Assembly: GCA_014879945.1 (NCBI GenBank)
Contig: JACSRE010000437.1
Location: 1 to 64,000, forward strand
Direction: 5' to 3'
Source: Myxococcus sp.
GTDB lineage: Bacteria; Myxococcota; Myxococcia; Myxococcales; Myxococcaceae
DNA length: 64,000 nt
Positions 35,901 to 46,142 of the stretch are shown here, in pieces. Numbering within the stretch: position 1 is the stretch's first letter; each line of letters opens with the position of its first letter. The notes under the pieces were generated by a model. It had not been told where the DNA came from. It made no database searches and saw only the letters and a program-made list of their open reading frames with translations. A program made the translations under genes and the position numbers.

Positions 35901-36069
35901 GCTGGCGCTGGCTGTGGACGCCGGTGTTCGCGGGAACCTCCAGGACGGGTGGAGGACCAACACGTTCAAGGTGAAGAAGGTCAGGAACGCCATCAAGGCG
36001 GCGCTCGATGGCGATGAGGCCACCACCGACCGGATTCTGGAGCTGGTGAAGAAGAACGATGAGTACTGA
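32971..36069 (+). CDS. hsdR: Type I restriction endonuclease subunit
   Basis: 1032 aa. N-terminal nuclease domain with PDLVLYVNGIALGVLELKRS opening (D...E-x-K, about 142-161). SF2 translocase: QGSGKSLT (about 285-292), VDECHR (about 394-399), FTGTPL, and helicase motif VI region QAICRVNRLDG. The C-terminal helical region links to the methyltransferase. It cleaves unmodified DNA after ATP-driven translocation. ATG overlaps the hsdS stop as ATGA; the next gene overlaps its end by 11 bases. Confidence 0.95.
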   Translation: MSAVGQIEKKTQARVRKLFCDDLKYEYLGDRSESENRNVETARLEDFLMKYQGFIEREDGDVLVRRAIAEFVKAAENTSLSLYDRNRAVYGLLRYGVKVKGEVGTNTETVWLIDWKTPERNQFAIAEEVTVKPNDPKAHGKRPDLVLYVNGIALGVLELKRSTVSVSEGIRQNLDNQKKEFIQPFFSTMQLVMAGNDTEGLRYGTIETREKYYLTWKELGPETNTLDRGLKQLCSKARFLELLHDFVVFDAGIKKFCRHNQYFGVKAAQDHVKRREGGIIWHTQGSGKSLTMVWLTKWIREHVKDARVLIITDRTELDEQIEKVFMGVNETIYRTKSGADLVSTLNATTPWLVCSLVHKFGGKEESDEEVAGYIEELKKALPKDFKAKGDIFVFVDECHRTQSGELHDAMTAILPNAMFIGFTGTPLLKADKKRSIEVFGRYIHTYKFDEAVKDGVVLDLRYEARDIDQAITSQKKIDQWFDAKTKGLTDLARAQLKARWGTMQKVLSSQSRLQKIVADILFDMETRDRLSSGRGNALLVAGSIYEACKFYELFSKTPLKGKCAIITSYAPKAADIKGEESGEGATDTLEKYAIYQQMLADWFNESPEKAVARVEEFEKVVKKKFVEEPAQMKLLIVVDKLLTGFDAPSATYLYIDKQMRDHGLFQAICRVNRLDGDDKEYGYIVDYKDLFKSLEGAVEDYTSGALDGYAKEDVAGLLEDRLGKAKERLEETRETVKALCQKVEAPQDTEAYIRYFCAKESGNAAQLKANEQLRLALYKHVAAFIRAYANLANELEDAGYNKAEVATLKAEVEHFEKARTEVKLASGDYIDLKMYEPAMRHLIDTYIQAEDSEKVSAFDDTSLIQLIVERGVEAVKALPASIQKNKESVAETIENNVRKLIVDEQPINPKYYEEMSQLLDALMQKRREQALEYQEYLRQIVELTKKVKNPAVGGSYPKTLNTTGRRALYDNLGRKEALALAVDAGVRGNLQDGWRTNTFKVKKVRNAIKAALDGDEATTDRILELVKKNDEY

Positions 36070-36787
36070 CCACGCCATCCAGGTGCGCGGCATCAAGGTG
36101 CAGGTGGTCCGCAAGGCCATCAAGAACCTGCACCTCGGCGTGTACCCGCCCAATGGGCGCGTGCGCGTGGCCGCCCCGAAGGCGGTCTCCAACGACGCCG
36201 TGCGGCTCGCGGTCATCGGCAAGCTCGGGTGGATTGGTCGCCAGCGCCGCAAGTTCCTTGGGCAGGCCAGGCAGTCGAGGCGCGAGATGGTCAGCGGGGA
36301 GAGCCACTACTTCCTTGGACGGCGCTACCGGCTCCGGGTTGTCGAGTTCGAGGGCTCAGCCGCGCAGGGCGTGAAGGAGCGCCCCGGCATCATCGAGCTC
36401 AACGTTCGCGTCGGCGCGGGGACCTCCGGCCGCGAGGCCGTGCTCGATGCTTGGTATCGGGAGCAGCTCCGTGAGGTCGCAGGTTTGCTGATGGAGAAGT
36501 GGCAGCGGAAGCTGGGCGTCGAGGCGGCCGACTGGGGCATCAAGCGGATGAAGACGAAGTGGGGGGCGTGCAACGCAGATTCACGGCGCGTGTGGCTCAA
36601 TCTGGAGCTGGTGAAGTCGCCCCCGCAGTGCATCGAGTACATCGTGGTCCACGAGCTCGTGCATCTGGTGACCCGCCGCCACGACGAACGGTTCTTCTCG
36701 CTGATGGACCGCCACCTGCCGAGCTGGCGTGCCCGGCGCGAGCTGCTGAACTCAGCGCCGCTGCCGCATGTGGTGTGGCCATGCTGA
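36059..36787 (+). CDS. M48/YgjP-type (DUF45) metallopeptidase of the restriction operon
   Basis: 242 aa. Zinc-protease motif HELVHL at H198-H202, followed by RRHDERFFSLMDRHLPSWRA. The N-terminal part (VQVVRKAIKNLHLGVYPPNGRVRVAAP) and KTKWGACNADSRRVWLN match the YgjP/WLM-type DUF45 family, which often follows hsdR in type I operons; its job there is not settled. Overlaps hsdR by 11 bases. A decayed relative lies at 42457-42600. Confidence 0.9.
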   Translation: MSTDHAIQVRGIKVQVVRKAIKNLHLGVYPPNGRVRVAAPKAVSNDAVRLAVIGKLGWIGRQRRKFLGQARQSRREMVSGESHYFLGRRYRLRVVEFEGSAAQGVKERPGIIELNVRVGAGTSGREAVLDAWYREQLREVAGLLMEKWQRKLGVEAADWGIKRMKTKWGACNADSRRVWLNLELVKSPPQCIEYIVVHELVHLVTRRHDERFFSLMDRHLPSWRARRELLNSAPLPHVVWPC

Positions 36788-36851
36788 TCTTCATTGGCAA
36801 GCCAGACTGGTCTCGGTGTGCTGGGGCGTGGTCCAAGAAAGAGGGGGGGCG

Positions 36852-38702
36852 ATGACAGCCGAAAGCGGTTCCAGTGGCGTGATCTTGTCCGATGTACGGG
36901 TGTCGAACTTCCGCTCGCTCGCCAATATCGAGGTTCAGCTCGGCCGGTTGACCCTTCTTGTTGGGGCGAACAACGCAGGGAAGACCAGTTTCCTGGACGC
37001 TCTGTACGCCGCCCTTGGGGCGGGCAGGAAGTTTCTGGGGCAAGACGACGTCCGAGTTGCACCCGGCGAAGCGCTTCCTCCGAAAGACAGGTCGATCACC
37101 ATCGATGTCAAGGTGCGGCCAGCGGATGCTTCTTCGATGCCCGCTGCGCAGTTCCCGGCGGGCAGCTTCTGGACGCAACTCTGGGGGACAGGAATCAGTC
37201 AGGCACTCGAAACCGATAGTCACGAGTTCATGGCCTTCCGGACAACCCTTTCCTGGAGCCCGGCGCGAGGCGAGTACGTTCTGACGCGGAAGTTCCTGAA
37301 AGAGTGGCTGCCCCTGGACAAGTGGCTCGCTGCTTCGACCCAAGACCAGGTCATCACCGCCACGCAAATCGAACCTATCGCGCTGCATTACATCGATGCG
37401 AAGCGCGACCTCGACGAAGACCTTCGTCGTCAGGGCTCCTTCTGGCGTCGCCTGACCGACGACCTCGGTTTGTCGCCAGAGGACGTAGAAGCCGTGGAGC
37501 AGGAACTCACCGAACTAAATCAGGGGATCGTCGAAAAGAGCGAGGTGCTGAAGCACCTGAAGACTCACCTCAGCGACATTCAACAGGTCGACAGGCCGGG
37601 AGGCACTGGTGTTGAGGTCGCCCCTGTCGCTCGCCAGCTCCGCGATCTTTCGAAGGGCGTGGACGTCACCTTCTCCTCAACTGGAGCTCAGGCCTTTCCG
37701 CTAACGCGACACGGAATGGGCACGCGTAGCCTTGCGTCACTCTTGGTCTTCCGAGCATTTGCCTCCTGGCGCACCGTCCAAGCCGCGAAAGAGGACGACT
37801 CGCTTCACACCTTGCTTGCGCTGGAGGAGCCGGAGGCGCACTTGCACCCGCATACCCAGCGATCCTTGTTCTCTCAGATCCGGGAAATGCCGGGGCAGCG
37901 CATTGTAAGCACGCACTCGCCGTTTTTTGCTGCGCAGTCCGAGCTCGGCGATCTGCGGCTATTCTGCAGGACGGACGGTGGAACGTCGGTAAGCCAGATC
38001 GACCTAGCGCTCCTGACCAACAAGGACGACGTGCGGAAGCTACGCCAGCGGGTCTTGGCGTCCCGAGGCGACGTCCTCTTCTCTCGGGCTGTCGTGTTCT
38101 TCGAAGGCGAGACCGAAGAGGTCGCGCTTCCGGTCTGGGCGGAGAAGTACTGGGGGACGAACATTCATGAATTGGGGCTCAGCTTTGTCGAGGTGGGTGG
38201 GAGCGCTGGCTACTTTCCATTCCTCTTGTTGGCTCACAGCCTCCGGATCCCCTGGTACGTGATGTCGGACGGGGAGCCGGAGCCGCTCAAGCAGCTCGAC
38301 GCGGCGCTGAAGAAGGTAGTCGGCAAGGAACGAGGGGCATGCGGAAACGTCGTCGTGCTTCCTGACGGCAACAACTTTGAGTCGCAGTTGATCGCCGATG
38401 GCTACCTTGCCGAAGTCGAGCAGGCAATTTCGGAGGTGTTTGGAAAGGACTATTTCGACTGGTACGTGAAGAACCAAGATGGCCAGCCGGGCCCCAAGAA
38501 GACGATCAGAGACTACAAGGGGGAGGCAGGCAGGAAGCGGGCGGCGCTGGACCTTCTCACGAATGAGAAGACCAAGATCGCAGCTCCGCTCGCCAAGGTG
38601 ATCGCGGGACTCGACGAACCTCGGAGGTTTCCGCCAATGATCAAGAAACTCCTTGAGACCATCTCGACGGAACAACAGCTCAAGAAGAAGGCTGCGCCGT
38701 GA
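36852..38702 (+). CDS. gajA: Gabija GajA-like OLD-family nuclease
   Basis: 616 aa. N-terminal SMC/OLD-type ATPase: Walker A GANNAGKT (38-45), Walker B LLALEEPEAHLHP (321-333) and STHS (353-356). C-terminal TOPRIM: VVFFEGETEE (E418, E420, E422) and YVMSDGEPE (D473-G-E475). The second TOPRIM motif has DGE rather than a canonical DxD. In Gabija, GajA is a DNA-nicking nuclease held in check by nucleotides. Its stop overlaps the helicase start as GTGA, the canonical gajAB order. Codon use is less GC-biased than the core. Confidence 0.9.
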   Translation: MTAESGSSGVILSDVRVSNFRSLANIEVQLGRLTLLVGANNAGKTSFLDALYAALGAGRKFLGQDDVRVAPGEALPPKDRSITIDVKVRPADASSMPAAQFPAGSFWTQLWGTGISQALETDSHEFMAFRTTLSWSPARGEYVLTRKFLKEWLPLDKWLAASTQDQVITATQIEPIALHYIDAKRDLDEDLRRQGSFWRRLTDDLGLSPEDVEAVEQELTELNQGIVEKSEVLKHLKTHLSDIQQVDRPGGTGVEVAPVARQLRDLSKGVDVTFSSTGAQAFPLTRHGMGTRSLASLLVFRAFASWRTVQAAKEDDSLHTLLALEEPEAHLHPHTQRSLFSQIREMPGQRIVSTHSPFFAAQSELGDLRLFCRTDGGTSVSQIDLALLTNKDDVRKLRQRVLASRGDVLFSRAVVFFEGETEEVALPVWAEKYWGTNIHELGLSFVEVGGSAGYFPFLLLAHSLRIPWYVMSDGEPEPLKQLDAALKKVVGKERGACGNVVVLPDGNNFESQLIADGYLAEVEQAISEVFGKDYFDWYVKNQDGQPGPKKTIRDYKGEAGRKRAALDLLTNEKTKIAAPLAKVIAGLDEPRRFPPMIKKLLETISTEQQLKKKAAP

Positions 38703-40552
38703 AGCGGGCGAGTCTGTCAGCTCAGCAGCGGAAAGTGGTCGAGCGCGTTGAGGGTGCATTGCTGGTTGTCGCAGGCCCTGGGTCGGGCAAGACGCGAGTC
38801 ATCACGGAGAGAGTGCGCAGGCTGCTCACAGACGTGCCCGGCCATTTTCGGGTGCTCGCTTTGACCTTCACGAACAAGGCTGCGAACGAGATGAAGGAAC
38901 GTCTCGTGGACCTGCCCGACGCGAAGACACGAGCCTTCATTGGCACGGTGCATAGCTTCTGCTTGGAGGTGCTCTCTGAGCGCGGGAAGCTCGTAGGGGT
39001 CGAGGGACTCCCGCAGATATTCGAGCAGAGCCAGGACCGAAAGCAGGTGCTGCTTGAGGCGGCCCAGTCGGATCCAGCACTTGCCGGAATGTTGGCTGAC
39101 GCACGGGACTCCAAGGCGCGGAACGCAGTTCTTGATGGCTGGATGAGGCTAATTTCTTGGAGGAAGGCACACCCAGTCTCCGCTGCCGAGGATGAAGACG
39201 ACGACGTCGGTCGCCGTGTTGTCGAGGCCTACGATGCGGGCCTACGTGCGTGTTCGGCATATGACTTCGATGACCTTCTTCTCCTCGTCTATCGCCTTCT
39301 GACGGAGTATCCACAGGTCGCGGACTTCTATCGGCGGCTTTATAGATTTGTGTGCGTTGATGAGGCTCAGGACTTGAATGAGGCGCAGTACTCGGTCCTG
39401 CGTGCGCTCTGCGGTGCTGAATTCAGAAACGTCGTCCTTGTCGGCGATCCGAAGCAGTCGATCTATGGATTCAATACGGCGAGCCCTGACTTCATGTATC
39501 GCTTTCGAGATGAATTTCACGCGGAAGAGGTGACGCTGACCGAGAACTTCCGCTCTTCGAAGGCCGTCGTGAAGATGGCCCAGCATCTCGATCCCAAGTA
39601 CATGGTGGAAGCGCAGCTTCCGATTCAGGGGCAGGTGTCCTTGCTCGTTGGGGTCAACGAGGCGGACGAGGCCCGGTTGGTGGTTGACGAGCTCCAACGA
39701 CTCACTGCTGAAGGACATGAGGACATCGAGTCGGACATTACGCCGTCGAGATGCGCAGTTCTGGGCCGCACCCGGTTCGCACTGATGGCAGTCGAGCGTG
39801 AACTGAAGCAGCGGGCGATTCCGTTCTACAAGCGGCTATCGGCCAACCACGAGAACGAGTCGGCAACGGTCGATGAGTTTCAACTCGCTCTTCGAGTCGT
39901 CGCCAACCCAAGGGACAGTCTTCACCTGGCTGCGCTCGCCAAGAAATGGGGTCGGAAGGTCGCTGAGAGAAGCCTTGGCGACCAGCCAGATGTTGCCAAA
40001 GCGCTGGCCGCGCTGGCGGGGGGGAGTGCTAGGGCCACGGCGGTTTCTGGGGCGGTGGCCACGGTTCTTCGCAAGCAGCGATTCGATCTGATGCCAGCGA
40101 TTCAGCACCTTCGGACGTATGCGGATTCACTTGGCGAGGCCGAAAGGCTGGAGATCTACGAGGACCTAACCGTGTTTGAGGAGGAGTGGGACCAGTACCT
40201 TCGAACTGCACCCGCTCCTCGCACCATCGGCGGGTTCATGAGCAGCAAGGCTCTCGGGGCGACCCAGCAGGCGAGCCGAGACGGTGTCGCGCTGCTTACG
40301 GTTCACTCCTCAAAGGGGCTTGAATTTGACGTCGTGTTCATTGCCGGAATGGCCAACGGCGTCTTCCCCGACTATCGAGCACAGGGGCGACCGAAGGAGA
40401 TGGCCGAGGAACGTCGGAATGCGTTCGTGGCCGTCACGCGTTCGCGGAGGCTCCTCTACTTCTCCTATGCCCAGCTTCGACTGATGCCCTGGGGCGACGA
40501 GAAGCGTCAGCAACCGTCCCCGTATCTGCGCGAGGCGGGACTTGTGACGTGA
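38699..40552 (+). CDS. gajB: Gabija GajB-like UvrD/PcrA helicase
   Basis: 617 aa SF1 helicase. Motif I GPGSGKT (26-32), LALTFTNKAANEM, IGTVHSFC, Walker B CVDEAQDLN, VGDPKQSIYGFN, LTENFRSS and the motif V-VI area LTVHSSKGLEFDVVFIAG, VAVTRSRRLLYFS. It is somewhat longer than the original GajB (494 aa). In Gabija it senses DNA ends and activates GajA. Coupled to gajA by a 4-base overlap. Confidence 0.91.
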   Translation: MKRASLSAQQRKVVERVEGALLVVAGPGSGKTRVITERVRRLLTDVPGHFRVLALTFTNKAANEMKERLVDLPDAKTRAFIGTVHSFCLEVLSERGKLVGVEGLPQIFEQSQDRKQVLLEAAQSDPALAGMLADARDSKARNAVLDGWMRLISWRKAHPVSAAEDEDDDVGRRVVEAYDAGLRACSAYDFDDLLLLVYRLLTEYPQVADFYRRLYRFVCVDEAQDLNEAQYSVLRALCGAEFRNVVLVGDPKQSIYGFNTASPDFMYRFRDEFHAEEVTLTENFRSSKAVVKMAQHLDPKYMVEAQLPIQGQVSLLVGVNEADEARLVVDELQRLTAEGHEDIESDITPSRCAVLGRTRFALMAVERELKQRAIPFYKRLSANHENESATVDEFQLALRVVANPRDSLHLAALAKKWGRKVAERSLGDQPDVAKALAALAGGSARATAVSGAVATVLRKQRFDLMPAIQHLRTYADSLGEAERLEIYEDLTVFEEEWDQYLRTAPAPRTIGGFMSSKALGATQQASRDGVALLTVHSSKGLEFDVVFIAGMANGVFPDYRAQGRPKEMAEERRNAFVAVTRSRRLLYFSYAQLRLMPWGDEKRQQPSPYLREAGLVT

Positions 40553-40631: not shown

Positions 40632-40955
40632 ATGGCAACGCGACGCGGAGTGCCTGGCCCACGAGCGGTCCAGCGAATTCTCAACGAGTATCTGGCGGGC
40701 GGGCCGGACCTTCGGGAAGCCGAGGCGCAGATCGGGCTAATTCGCCGAGCATGCGAGAAGAACGTGCAGACAGCTCAAGCAGCGCTGGAGCGGATGACCA
40801 TCTCCGGTAGCGCGGACGACGAGACGCTCGGGGTTCTCCTTGAGCTTTTGTCGCGCCCCCAGCGACAGGCACTTCAGGCGGCAAAGGACACGCTTACGAC
40901 CGTGGAACATGCGTTGACGCGTGTTCGACAGGCGCGAGGCGACCGCGAGCGATGA
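40632..40955 (+). CDS. Small helical protein downstream of Gabija
   Basis: 107 aa, helical (KNVQTAQAALERM, ALQAAKDTLTTVEHALTRV), with a strong ribosome site (GGAGGACAAGC) before the ATG. No family recognised. ATGA overlap with the next gene argues for a two-gene unit, perhaps with this as the small regulatory or antitoxin-like member. Confidence 0.65.
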   Translation: MATRRGVPGPRAVQRILNEYLAGGPDLREAEAQIGLIRRACEKNVQTAQAALERMTISGSADDETLGVLLELLSRPQRQALQAAKDTLTTVEHALTRVRQARGDRER

Positions 40956-41632
40956 CAACCAAACAGCAGCCAACGCCGACCACGGCTCCCTTGCTCGGCT
41001 ACAGGGGGAAGCACGAATGGCTCGACATGTCGGACTTCCTCGTTCACCTCATTCGCAAGGGTGACGGGGCGTATCGGGGCTTTATGTCGATTCTTGCTGG
41101 TGGCGTGCTCAAACCCGGTCCGAAGGCATTCGGGGCGGCCCGCGAGATGGGCGAGTCGCAGCGTTCGGTCTGCTTCAGCGAAGTTCCACTGGGGTTCCTG
41201 ACGAGATTCATGGCGAGCAGAAGCACGATGGGCATCGCGTTCCACAAGTCCATTGCGGTCGCCCGTGGATGCGCCCCCGTCTGGTACGTCCGCCCCAAGA
41301 GCAAGCCCTTCAGCGCAGTCAAGAAGCTGATCGCTGAGGCGAAGGCGTCGGGTGAAAGCGACTCACCCGTCTGGGCTCTTACGCCGTTCATCGACCATCC
41401 CGCCGCAGCGTACAAGTACGAGTTCGAGTGGGAGCGGGAATGGCGACACGTCGGCGCTTTCGAATTCAAGCCGCCCGACGTCGCGTTCCTACTCCTTGAG
41501 GGGGAGAACCACGCTCGAGCCCGCAGCTTCCTTGCGGCGGCTGAGGCCGAGAATCTAGGGCCGAACTACCCGTGCCCCTTCGTTGATCCTCGGTGGTCGA
41601 CAACAGAAGTGGCCGCAGCCCTGGGGCCCTAA
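40952..41632 (+). CDS. AbiGi/DUF2971-like protein (tentative)
   Basis: 226 aa. The order HLIRKGDG...MSILAGGVLKPG, QRSVCFSEVPLGFL, GIAFHKSIAVARG and finally YEFEWEREWRHVG resembles the AbiGi/DUF2971 family tied to abortive infection, where a late E-x-E-W-R is conserved. This is a by-eye match, not a search. ATGA overlap with the 107-aa gene, position right after Gabija and before the island end all fit a phage-defence role. Confidence 0.6.
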   Translation: MTTKQQPTPTTAPLLGYRGKHEWLDMSDFLVHLIRKGDGAYRGFMSILAGGVLKPGPKAFGAAREMGESQRSVCFSEVPLGFLTRFMASRSTMGIAFHKSIAVARGCAPVWYVRPKSKPFSAVKKLIAEAKASGESDSPVWALTPFIDHPAAAYKYEFEWEREWRHVGAFEFKPPDVAFLLLEGENHARARSFLAAAEAENLGPNYPCPFVDPRWSTTEVAAALGP

Positions 41633-41706
41633 ACATGAATCAGGGCCGCCGGTGCCAGCCGAGTTCATCAGATCGCCCTTTGCGTCCAGCGAAGCTCTCT
41701 GGGACG

Positions 41707-42168
41707 TCAGCGCTCGAACAGAGAAAAGCGCACCCAAGTGCCTCGGTCGAACTTCTCGATTGTCGTCCAGAGAGCAGATGGAACCGCATCAAAGGTCGCT
41801 CGCCAATCGTTCGGGTTCGCCCCGTCGGACTTCGCCACCAGCGCAAGCGCCTTGGCGTGCGACGGGTTGATTCCGCTCAGATGACGGAACCGCACCCACG
41901 TGTGCGGTGCGGTCTCCAGAGCAACAGCGATTCGGACCAAACCGCCTCCGAGCGTGTTCATCTCCTCCATGGTCGCAGTACGGCGGACACCAGCGACCAC
42001 GATTCCCTTGCTCGCCGTCCTCTCCCAGACCTGATTGAACGAGAACCAAACGGCCGGCTTCTCGCCTGTGGGCACGTTTTCAACTGCCGGTTTGATCGTG
42101 CCTTCTCGGCTGATGGCTTCGAACTTCTCCCCGGTCGTGTAGTGCCAGAGCCTCTTGGTGTTCGACAT
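41707..42168 (-). CDS. Unknown protein at the right end of element A
   Basis: 153 aa from the ATG at 42168. Opens KRLWHYTTGEKFEAISREGTIKPA and continues VWFSFNQVWERTA, a layout seen in small uncharacterised proteins distantly like ADP-ribosyltransferases or DUF2971 (aromatic H-Y-T strand, then a V-W-F-S strand). Convergent with the AbiGi-like gene. Function unknown. Confidence 0.6.
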   Translation of the reverse strand: MSNTKRLWHYTTGEKFEAISREGTIKPAVENVPTGEKPAVWFSFNQVWERTASKGIVVAGVRRTATMEEMNTLGGGLVRIAVALETAPHTWVRFRHLSGINPSHAKALALVAKSDGANPNDWRATFDAVPSALWTTIEKFDRGTWVRFSLFER

Positions 42169-42362: not shown

Positions 42363-42408
42363 AAGAACGGCCGGAGATCCCCTGGGTCCCCGGCCGTTCT
42401 TCTTTCTG
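42363..42408 (+). terminator. Probable native tRNA-fMet terminator, displaced
   Basis: Perfect 12-bp stem AAGAACGGCCGG (42363-42374) and CCGGCCGTTCTT (42390-42401) followed by CTTTCT. It starts four bases after attR, where the tRNA terminator would lie if element A were removed. Confidence 0.75.
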
Positions 42409-42412
42409 CTCG
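42371..42412. repeat. 42-bp direct repeat, left copy (element B boundary)
   Basis: Identical to 46101-46142; covers the right half of the terminator stem-loop and the bases after it. The left copy keeps the full stem on its left side, as expected for the host-flanked side of an attachment site. Confidence 0.8.
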
Positions 42413-42456
42413 GGGGCTCGTCATCAGGGCGCGATGGGCAGAACCGCGGGGGGGGC

Positions 42457-42600
42457 ATCGTGGTCAACGAATTCGTTCAACCGGTGGCCCGCCACCACGA
42501 CGAGCGGTTCTTCAAACTGATGTCCCGCCGCGTGCCGGGCTGGCGTGCTCGGCGGCACCTGTTGAATAGCCAGCCGCCGCCTGTGGTGTGGCCCTCATGA
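42457..42600 (+). pseudogene. Remnant of an M48/DUF45 metallopeptidase gene
   Basis: 47 codons plus stop aligning to the end of the intact gene at 36059-36787: IVVNEFVQPVARHHDERFF against IVVHELVHLVTRRHDERFF, then WRARR...LLNS...VVWP in both. The zinc motif HELVH has become NEFVQ, so it is catalytically dead, and everything upstream is missing at the repeat junction. It shows that a second type I-like operon once lay here. Confidence 0.85.
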
Positions 42601-42624: not shown

Positions 42625-44421
42625 ATGCCTACGCAGAGATACTCGGTCACGCAGCCGCCCATCGAGACCCTGTTCACCTGGATAAACTCGGGGGAAATCG
42701 CCATCCCTGAGATCCAGCGCCCATTCGTCTGGGACGCTTCGAAGGTCCGCAATCTCCTGGACTCGCTCCTTCAGGGCTTCCCGGTCGGCTACCTCATCGC
42801 GTGGCGGAATCCGGACGTCCGACTCAAGGATGGAACGAAAGCGTCGGGCAAGCGCATCCTCATTGACGGCCAGCAGCGAGTGACCGCCCTGATGGCGGCG
42901 CTCCTCGGGCGGGAGGTCGTGACCAAGGACTACGAAACGACCCGCATCCGAATCGCCTACCAGCCCACCACCAGGAAGTTCGAGGTCCACAACCCAGCTA
43001 TCGCCAAGGACAAGTCGTGGATCGCTGACGTCTCCGCGGTTTTCGACCCGGGCACGAAGCTCTTCGGGTTGGTGAACGAGTACTGCAAGGCGAACGCTGG
43101 TACGTCGCAGGAGGACATCTTTGCGAGCCTTGAGACCCTCAGGGGCATCACGAGCAACCAGATCGGCCTCATCGAGTTGGCCTCGGAGCTCGACATCGAG
43201 ACGGTCACCGAGATCTTCATCCGCGTGAACTCCGAGGGCGTTCCGCTCGGTCAGGCGGACTTCGCCATGTCGAAAATCGCCGTGAACGAAGCCTACGGCG
43301 GGAACGCGCTCCGGAAGGCAATCGACTACTTCTGCCACCTCGCGGTCGCGCCAGACTTCTACAGCGTCATCACCAAGAACGACGTCACCTTCGCGAAGTC
43401 GGACTTCCTGCAGCAGATGGCTTGGCTGCGAAAAGAGAACGACGACCTCTTCGACCCCTCGTACACCGACATGCTTCGGGTCGCGTTCACCTCGGAGTTC
43501 CGTCGCGGGAAGTTGGAGGACCTGGTGGCGCTTCTCTCGGGCCGCAATTTCGAGACGAAGCAATACGAGGAGGCGATCGTTCAGGACTCCTTCTCGCGCC
43601 TGAGGAGCGGCGTCGAGCGGTTCATGAACGAGACGCACTTCAAGCGTTTCATCATGATCATCAGGTCGGCGGGGTTCGTGGACGCGTCGATGATCGGCTC
43701 GCAGAACGCACTCGACTTCGCGTACATCCTGTACCTGACGCTTCGTGAGCTGAAGGTGCCCGACGCCGATATCGAGCGCCACGTTCGACGGTGGTTCGTG
43801 ATGTCGCTGCTGACGGGGCGCTACTCGGGCTCGCCTGAGTCGACCATCGACTACGACATCCGACAGATCCACGCCCAGGGCGTGGTCGCGTTCACGGACT
43901 CGATCATTCGCGGAGACCTGTCGGATGCGTTCTGGGGCGCGTCGCTGCCGCAGGAACTCGATACCTCGTCGTCGTCGAGCCCTCACTTCCGCGTCTTCAA
44001 GGCCGCCCAGGTCAAGCTGGGAGACAAGGGGTTCCTGTCGAAGGACATCTCGGTTCGGGAACTCATCGAGGTGAAGTCTGACGTGCACCATCTCTTCCCC
44101 AAGGACTTCTTGAAGAAGAACGGGCTCGCCCGAGGCCAGTACAACCAGGTCGCCAATTACGCGGTGACCCAGAGCGAGATCAACATCGCGATCGGGAACA
44201 AGGAGCCGGCGACGTACTTCGCGCAACTGCGTGAGCAGTGCACCGGCGGCAAGAAGCGGTACGGGAACATCACCAACGAGGATGACCTTCGAGCGAATCT
44301 GGCCTCACACTGCATTCCCGAGATCATTGGGCAGTCTGGGCTCAGCGACTTCCCTCGGTTCCTCGCGGAGCGGCGAAAGTTGATGGCGGCGAAGATCCAC
44401 AAGTACTTCGACACGCTGTAG
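42625..44421 (+). CDS. DUF262/HNH protein (GmrSD-like restriction)
   Basis: 598 aa. N-terminal DUF262: [10 protein letters not shown] (about 27-36), [10 protein letters not shown] and DGQQR (81-85), the nucleotide-binding ParB-like motif of this family. C-terminal HNH-like part (DUF1524 type): [15 protein letters not shown] with H488-H489, [20 protein letters not shown]. This arrangement is that of GmrSD and related modification-dependent or phage-restricting nucleases, here as a single chain. Preceded by the metallopeptidase remnant, ribosome site GAAGGGTGAGACG. Confidence 0.87.
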
Positions 44422-46100: not shown

Positions 46101-46142
46101 CCGGAGATCCCCTGGGTCCCCGGCCGTTCTTCTTTCTGCTCG
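46101..46142. repeat. 42-bp direct repeat, right copy
   Basis: Identical to 42371-42412. The left arm of the terminator stem is missing here, so only a fragment of the hairpin forms. Core sequence resumes after it. Confidence 0.8.

What the first reader, a model, noticed from the sequence alone, without database searches (positions are those of the whole stretch)
40632..42168. Unannotated small genes after Gabija as possible new defence units
The 107/226-aa pair overlaps by four bases, and a 153-aa gene converges on it. The 226-aa protein shows F-S-E-V-P and E-W-E-R-E-W-R elements reminiscent of AbiGi/DUF2971. The 153-aa protein has H-Y-T-T and V-W-F-S strands that look loosely similar in layout, so both may belong to one broad fold. 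The small 107-aa helical gene could be an antitoxin.
Basis: inference. Interest (0 to 1): 0.65.

Follow-up and report, generated by a model that had tools for sequence, protein, structure and literature searches.

The report
AbiGi gene and ART-like neighbour beside Gabija
In a bacterial defence island, the gene after the Gabija anti-phage system is a member of the known AbiGi family and the gene facing it belongs to a small unnamed family; both probably share the fold of ADP-ribosylating enzymes, while the little gene in between looks like a one-off with no known relatives.

Summary
The three genes are real at the stated coordinates. The 226-aa protein (40952-41632 +) is an AbiGi-family member: Pfam PF10899 30.7 bits against a cut-off of 22.4. 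It is normally a stand-alone gene. It is universal in the sampled Myxococcus/Pyxidicoccus and Corallococcus genomes, but sporadic elsewhere, where it often sits in defence islands. Gabija (GajA+GajB) lies in 7 of 51 non-redundant AbiGi neighbourhoods besides this one, in varying order and strand, so it is a recurrent neighbour rather than a subunit. The 153-aa protein (41707-42168 -) has no named family. Its relatives are phage and plasmid genes, and its AlphaFold model matches the ADP-ribosyltransferase (ART) fold: 46 of the top 50 PDB hits are ARTs. Profile comparison links it to Tpt1/KptA over 65 columns (E 3.6e-4; best of 120 decoys 8e-3). AbiGi shows the same fold weakly here, and a 2018 paper (PMC6192313) had already placed AbiGi with DUF4433 in the ART superfamily. 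The 107-aa 'antitoxin' is not: it has no detectable homologue, including in 94 AbiGi loci. Most likely: a solo AbiGi ART-type effector plus a second, phage-derived ART-fold gene. Toxicity, NAD use and protection are untested.

The parts
40632..40955 (+). 107-aa helical ORF, no known family, coupled start with the next gene
   Evidence: no hit in Pfam, PADLOC, PHROGs or plasmids, and no real relative in 60 genomes; no relative in 94 AbiGi loci
40952..41632 (+). AbiGi-family protein (PF10899), predicted ADP-ribosyltransferase fold; H32, C74-F-S-E77, W160-EREW-R165 conserved
41707..42168 (-). 153-aa ART-fold protein of an unnamed phage/plasmid-borne family (H9-Y-T11, W41, S43, R79 invariant)
36768..38702 (+). 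GajA of the neighbouring Gabija system (context)
   Evidence: PADLOC GajA E 7e-220
38699..40552 (+). GajB of the neighbouring Gabija system (context)
   Evidence: PADLOC GajB E 1.5e-229
42625..44421 (+). DUF262/GmrSD_N protein downstream, similar to PADLOC candidate HEC-05 (context)
   Evidence: PF03235 E 7.5e-29, HEC-05 E 5e-32

Best explanation
The locus holds two independent ADP-ribosyltransferase-fold genes placed tail to tail next to a complete Gabija system. The 226-aa gene is a solo AbiGi-family gene. I infer that on phage infection it uses NAD+ at a pocket built from H32 (first strand), the CFSE strand and the EREW motif, to modify a phage or host molecule or to destroy NAD+, so aborting the infection. 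The 153-aa gene is a member of a small unnamed, phage- and plasmid-borne ART-fold family close in layout to Tpt1/KptA; it is probably prophage-derived cargo with defence or counter-defence use. The 107-aa ORF is a lineage-specific small gene, co-translated with AbiGi, of unknown role. Shown: genes, families, mostly solo distribution, fold of the 153-aa protein by model and profile. Inferred: enzyme activity, target, defence role.
For: AbiGi membership above the curated cut-off and in PADLOC. Model pLDDT 91.5; four of its top five PDB matches are ARTs, although E is about 1. E77 and WEREWR are invariant in 41 sequences and H32 is present in the 40 that cover it. The 153-aa model (pLDDT 78) matches ARTs in 46 of the top 50 PDB hits, Foldseek probability up to 0.99. 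Profile comparisons: 153-aa family to KptA E 3.6e-4, to DUF2971 E 2.7e-4, to AbiGi E 0.0054, none equalled by 117-120 decoys; the known ART pair KptA-DarT scores only 0.054. Published profile work puts AbiGi with DUF4433 (DarT) in the ART fold (PMC6192313). AbiGi is solo in most of 51 neighbourhood clusters. ART-based defence is established for CmdTAC (PMC11618068).
Against: No catalytic activity, toxicity or protection of a stand-alone AbiGi was found in the papers read. Lactococcal abiGi and abiGii expressed singly were not toxic in E. coli (PMC3985639). AbiGi to KptA by profile is not significant (E 0.26) and AbiGi to DarT is borderline (3 of 120 decoys as good). Foldseek E-values for the AbiGi model are about 1. 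In Myxococcus and Corallococcus the gene is universal, which fits a housekeeping role as well as defence.
Confidence: 0.5

Rival explanations
1. The 226-aa protein is what its curated name says: an antitoxin or regulator of an AbiGii nucleotidyltransferase, here an orphan that lost or works in trans with its toxin.
For: Pfam and NCBI call the family 'AbiGi, antitoxin'. Lactococcal abiGi/abiGii form a bicistronic operon (PMC3985639).
Against: No AbiGii neighbour in the window and solo in most relatives. An invariant enzyme-like E-x-E motif and H32 are kept. AbiGii was not toxic alone in E. coli, so the antitoxin label is itself by analogy.
Confidence: 0.15
2. The 107/226-aa pair is a toxin-antitoxin module with the 107-aa protein as antitoxin.
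For: ATGA overlap and shared strand suggest translational coupling; small helical protein.
Against: The 107-aa protein has no homologue in libraries, plasmids or relatives' genomes and no similar protein in 94 AbiGi loci. Only 13 of 51 clusters have any close same-strand upstream gene and these are unrelated, 162 to 1138 aa.
Confidence: 0.1
3. AbiGi is an add-on effector of Gabija, functionally coupled to GajA/GajB.
For: GajA+GajB lie in 7 of 51 non-redundant AbiGi neighbourhoods besides the window, in several phyla and on scattered branches. GajA is the commonest identifiable defence gene among immediate neighbours (5-6 of 99). In Sphingobium AbiGi directly follows GajB on the same strand (L035).
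Against: Order and strand vary (before, after, divergent) and most AbiGi genes have no Gabija nearby. Gabija is present in over 15% of genomes (PMC10781630, abstract), so sharing defence islands is expected.
Confidence: 0.15
4. This AbiGi lineage has a non-defence, housekeeping role in Myxococcota and is in the island by chance.
For: Present in all 16 sampled genomes of one genus (Corallococcus) and all 27 of another (Myxococcus/Pyxidicoccus), one intact full-length copy each. The window copy groups with Myxococcota sequences (97/88 and 87/83 support).
Against: Absent from the six other genomes of the window's genus. The window copy lies among Gabija, type I restriction-modification and DUF262 genes; relatives elsewhere are on plasmids, some next to Shedu, SIR2 or Gabija genes.
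Confidence: 0.15

Closest known systems
AbiGi (Pfam PF10899; PADLOC PDLC02331)
   Same: 226-aa protein scores above the family cut-off across residues 69-173, a stretch that holds the CFSE and WEREWR core
   Different: No AbiGii partner; only 10.5 bits to the AbiGI model NF042957 (cut-off 300)
DarT/DUF4433 of DarTG (ADP-ribosylates DNA)
   Same: First-strand H-[I/F/Y]-T motif; published as one ART assemblage with AbiGi (PMC6192313); among the PDB matches of the 153-aa model
   Different: No DarG macrodomain antitoxin beside either gene; profile match to AbiGi borderline
Tpt1/KptA RNA 2'-phosphotransferase (PF01885)
   Same: 153-aa family aligns over 65 columns, HGT..I..G..HVHLS against HYTT..I..G..VWFS; top fold matches
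   Different: No Pfam match to it; KptA's second histidine motif is replaced by VWFS, so the same chemistry is unlikely
DUF2971 (PF11185)
   Same: H-Y-T, CF(S) and E-x-E-[FW]-R layout; profile E 2.7e-4 to the 153-aa family, 0.015 to AbiGi
   Different: Neither window protein matches the Pfam model
CmdTAC (ART toxin, antitoxin, chaperone)
   Same: ART-fold defence effector; toxin alone not toxic in E. coli
   Different: Three-gene system; no such partners here

Membership tests
AbiGi (PF10899) | Pfam score at or above the gathering cut-off | tested here: met
   30.7 bits against 22.4
AbiGi/AbiGii two-gene Abi system | AbiGii nucleotidyltransferase encoded next door | tested here: not met
   No AbiGii or nucleotidyltransferase match in the adjacent genes
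ADP-ribosyltransferase fold, 153-aa protein | ART-like structure | tested here: met
   46 of top 50 PDB matches are ARTs, probability up to 0.99, though best E is 0.025; KptA profile match E 3.6e-4
ADP-ribosyltransferase fold, 226-aa protein | ART-like structure | tested here: inconclusive
   ARTs at ranks 2-5 but E about 1; published profile assignment
Active ADP-ribosyltransferase | NAD+ use and ADP-ribose transfer | not testable with these tools
   Needs an assay
DUF2971 (PF11185) | Pfam match | tested here: not met
   Neither protein matches it
Toxin-antitoxin pair 107/226 | Conserved two-gene linkage | tested here: not met
   No 107-aa homologue in 94 AbiGi loci
Gabija subunit | Constant linkage with GajA/GajB | tested here: not met
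   7 of 51 clusters besides the window, variable order

The most novel reading that the evidence does not exclude
AbiGi-family ARTs are stand-alone NAD-using anti-phage effectors that repeatedly team up with Gabija, and the 153-aa family is a second, unrecognised phage-borne ART family whose presence tail to tail with AbiGi reflects an ART-based defence and counter-defence exchange.
Probability: 0.15. Interest if true: 0.65.

Novelty: new member of a known kind. Interest (0 to 1): 0.35.

Why it matters
AbiGi is annotated as an 'antitoxin' by analogy, yet most relatives found here are solo genes with a strictly kept enzyme-like motif. If they are ART effectors, a large set of database labels is wrong and a common solo defence gene is open to direct test. 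The 153-aa family adds an unannotated phage-linked ART-fold family.

Tried and rejected
Sequence search of the PDB with both proteins and their profiles found nothing significant; the only ART hits were DarT at E 0.5 and 1.8 on the first-strand motif of the 153-aa profile. Viral-contig scans with the 153-aa family found few relatives. Search for the 153-aa family in 195 genomes of the window's phylum and 274 gammaproteobacterial genomes found only the window copy; the 274 held no positive control. Direct AbiGi to KptA profile match rejected (E 0.26, 19 of 120 decoys as good). DNA-level search of the block found no copy of it in the plasmid collection. The L076 UvrD-like and lone L085 GajA-like neighbours were not counted as Gabija.

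Full report
Observation. The three ORFs are present as described: 107 aa at 40632-40955 +, 226 aa at 40952-41632 + with an ATGA overlap, and 153 aa at 41707-42168 - (an in-frame TTG extends it to 165 aa). GajA (36768-38702) and GajB (38699-40552) match PADLOC Gabija models at E below 1e-200, so the genes do follow a Gabija system. Further context is a type I restriction-modification set and a YgjP-like metallopeptidase gene upstream, and a DUF262/GmrSD_N gene downstream.

The 226-aa protein. It matches Pfam AbiGi (PF10899) at 30.7 bits against a cut-off of 22.4 and PADLOC AbiGi at 5e-7. Several plasmid relatives, of 25-42% identity, are already annotated 'abortive infection system antitoxin AbiGi family protein'. 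Across 41 sequences E77, P79 and W160-R165 (WEREWR) are invariant, and D25, S27 and H32 are present in all 40 that cover them. AlphaFold gives a confident model (pLDDT 91.5, pTM 0.85). Foldseek against the PDB has no significant hit, but ranks 2-5 are KptA, Tpt1, Arr and Tpt1, all ADP-ribosyltransferase (ART) superfamily. A published profile-profile study had already put AbiGi together with DUF4433 in one ART-fold family (PMC6192313). So family membership is certain here, the ART fold is likely, and its proposal is not new.

Distribution. AbiGi homologues occur as one intact full-length copy in all 16 sampled genomes of one genus and all 27 of another (Corallococcus and Myxococcus/Pyxidicoccus, judged from matching contig lengths and titles), plus both genomes of a third genus, but in none of the six other genomes of the window's genus. 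A tree places the window copy with a Polyangiaceae sequence (97/88) and then the Myxococcus/Corallococcus group (87/83). Elsewhere the family is sporadic in Alphaproteobacteria, Actinomycetota, Chloroflexota and others. In 51 clusters at 70% identity the gene is mostly alone on its strand: 13 have a close same-strand upstream gene, and these are unrelated.

Gabija link. Both GajA and GajB relatives lie in the fetched neighbourhood of L035, L043, L045, L054, L075, L078, L100 and L101, that is 7 of 51 clusters, on scattered branches for those in the tree. Among 99 immediate neighbours GajA models are the most frequent PADLOC match (5-6 members), GajB 4; Shedu (Pfam) 2. Order and strand vary. Gabija occurs in over 15% of genomes (PMC10781630, abstract), and no matched control was run, so I read this as shared defence islands with a possible preference, not a subunit.

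The 107-aa ORF. A GGAGGA box precedes it, but it has no match in Pfam, PADLOC, PHROGs or plasmids, only chance-level hits in NCBIfam and in 60 related genomes, and no similar protein in 94 AbiGi loci. An antitoxin role is therefore unsupported, though it cannot be excluded for this one locus.

The 153-aa protein. No family library recognises it. Relatives at 28-36% identity are in Vibrio, Photobacterium and Cupriavidus plasmids, Pseudomonas phage phiAH14b and viral contigs; none was found in other genomes of the window's phylum. A model from only four sequences reaches pLDDT 78. Its PDB matches are ARTs in 46 of the top 50 rows (Tpt1/KptA, DarT, toxin catalytic domains, PARP3), with probabilities up to 0.99 although E-values are 0.025 or worse. 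Against viral models the two hits at E below 1e-3 are unnamed phage G proteins; a phage DarT ranks sixth. Profile comparison against KptA built from genomes of the window's phylum aligns 65 columns through both core motifs, E 3.6e-4, with no block-shuffled decoy better than 8e-3. The same family matches DUF2971 at 2.7e-4 and AbiGi at 0.0054, again with no decoy as good. The accepted ART pair KptA-DarT scores 0.054 in the same test, so these values are meaningful. H9-Y10-T11, W41, S43 and R79 are invariant in seven sequences, while the late acidic position is E or Q, so activity is uncertain.

How it may work. By analogy with CmdTAC, an ART defence effector in which the toxin alone is harmless until conditions change (PMC11618068), the AbiGi protein could be a conditional NAD-dependent effector. 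The non-toxicity of lactococcal abiGi expressed alone (PMC3985639) fits this but equally fits a non-toxic antitoxin. This step is inference.

Verdict. A known family (AbiGi), a second small and unnamed ART-fold family, and an orphan ORF. Moderately interesting; the main value is doubt about the 'antitoxin' label and a new unannotated ART-fold family.

Noticed in passing
42371-42412 and 46101-46142: A perfect 42-bp direct repeat, the only two copies in the 7.7-Mb genome, flanks the DUF262 block; the left copy is part of a strong hairpin (-32 kcal/mol). It may be an integration-site or terminator duplication.
   Followed up: partly
about 42452-42600 against 36059-36787: A truncated copy of the 3' end of the YgjP-like metallopeptidase gene lies before the DUF262 gene, so the Gabija/AbiGi/153-aa block sits between an intact and a broken ygjP copy, suggesting it was inserted as a cassette.
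   Followed up: partly
L002-L030 (Myxococcus, Pyxidicoccus, Corallococcus): A single-copy AbiGi homologue is universal in sampled genomes of these predatory bacteria, outside obvious defence islands in the loci looked at.
   Followed up: partly
L033:5932-7864: On a Rhizobium plasmid AbiGi directly precedes a Shedu nuclease gene, another defence pairing.
   Followed up: no
42625-44421: DUF262/GmrSD_N-only protein with similarity to PADLOC candidate HEC-05.
   Followed up: no
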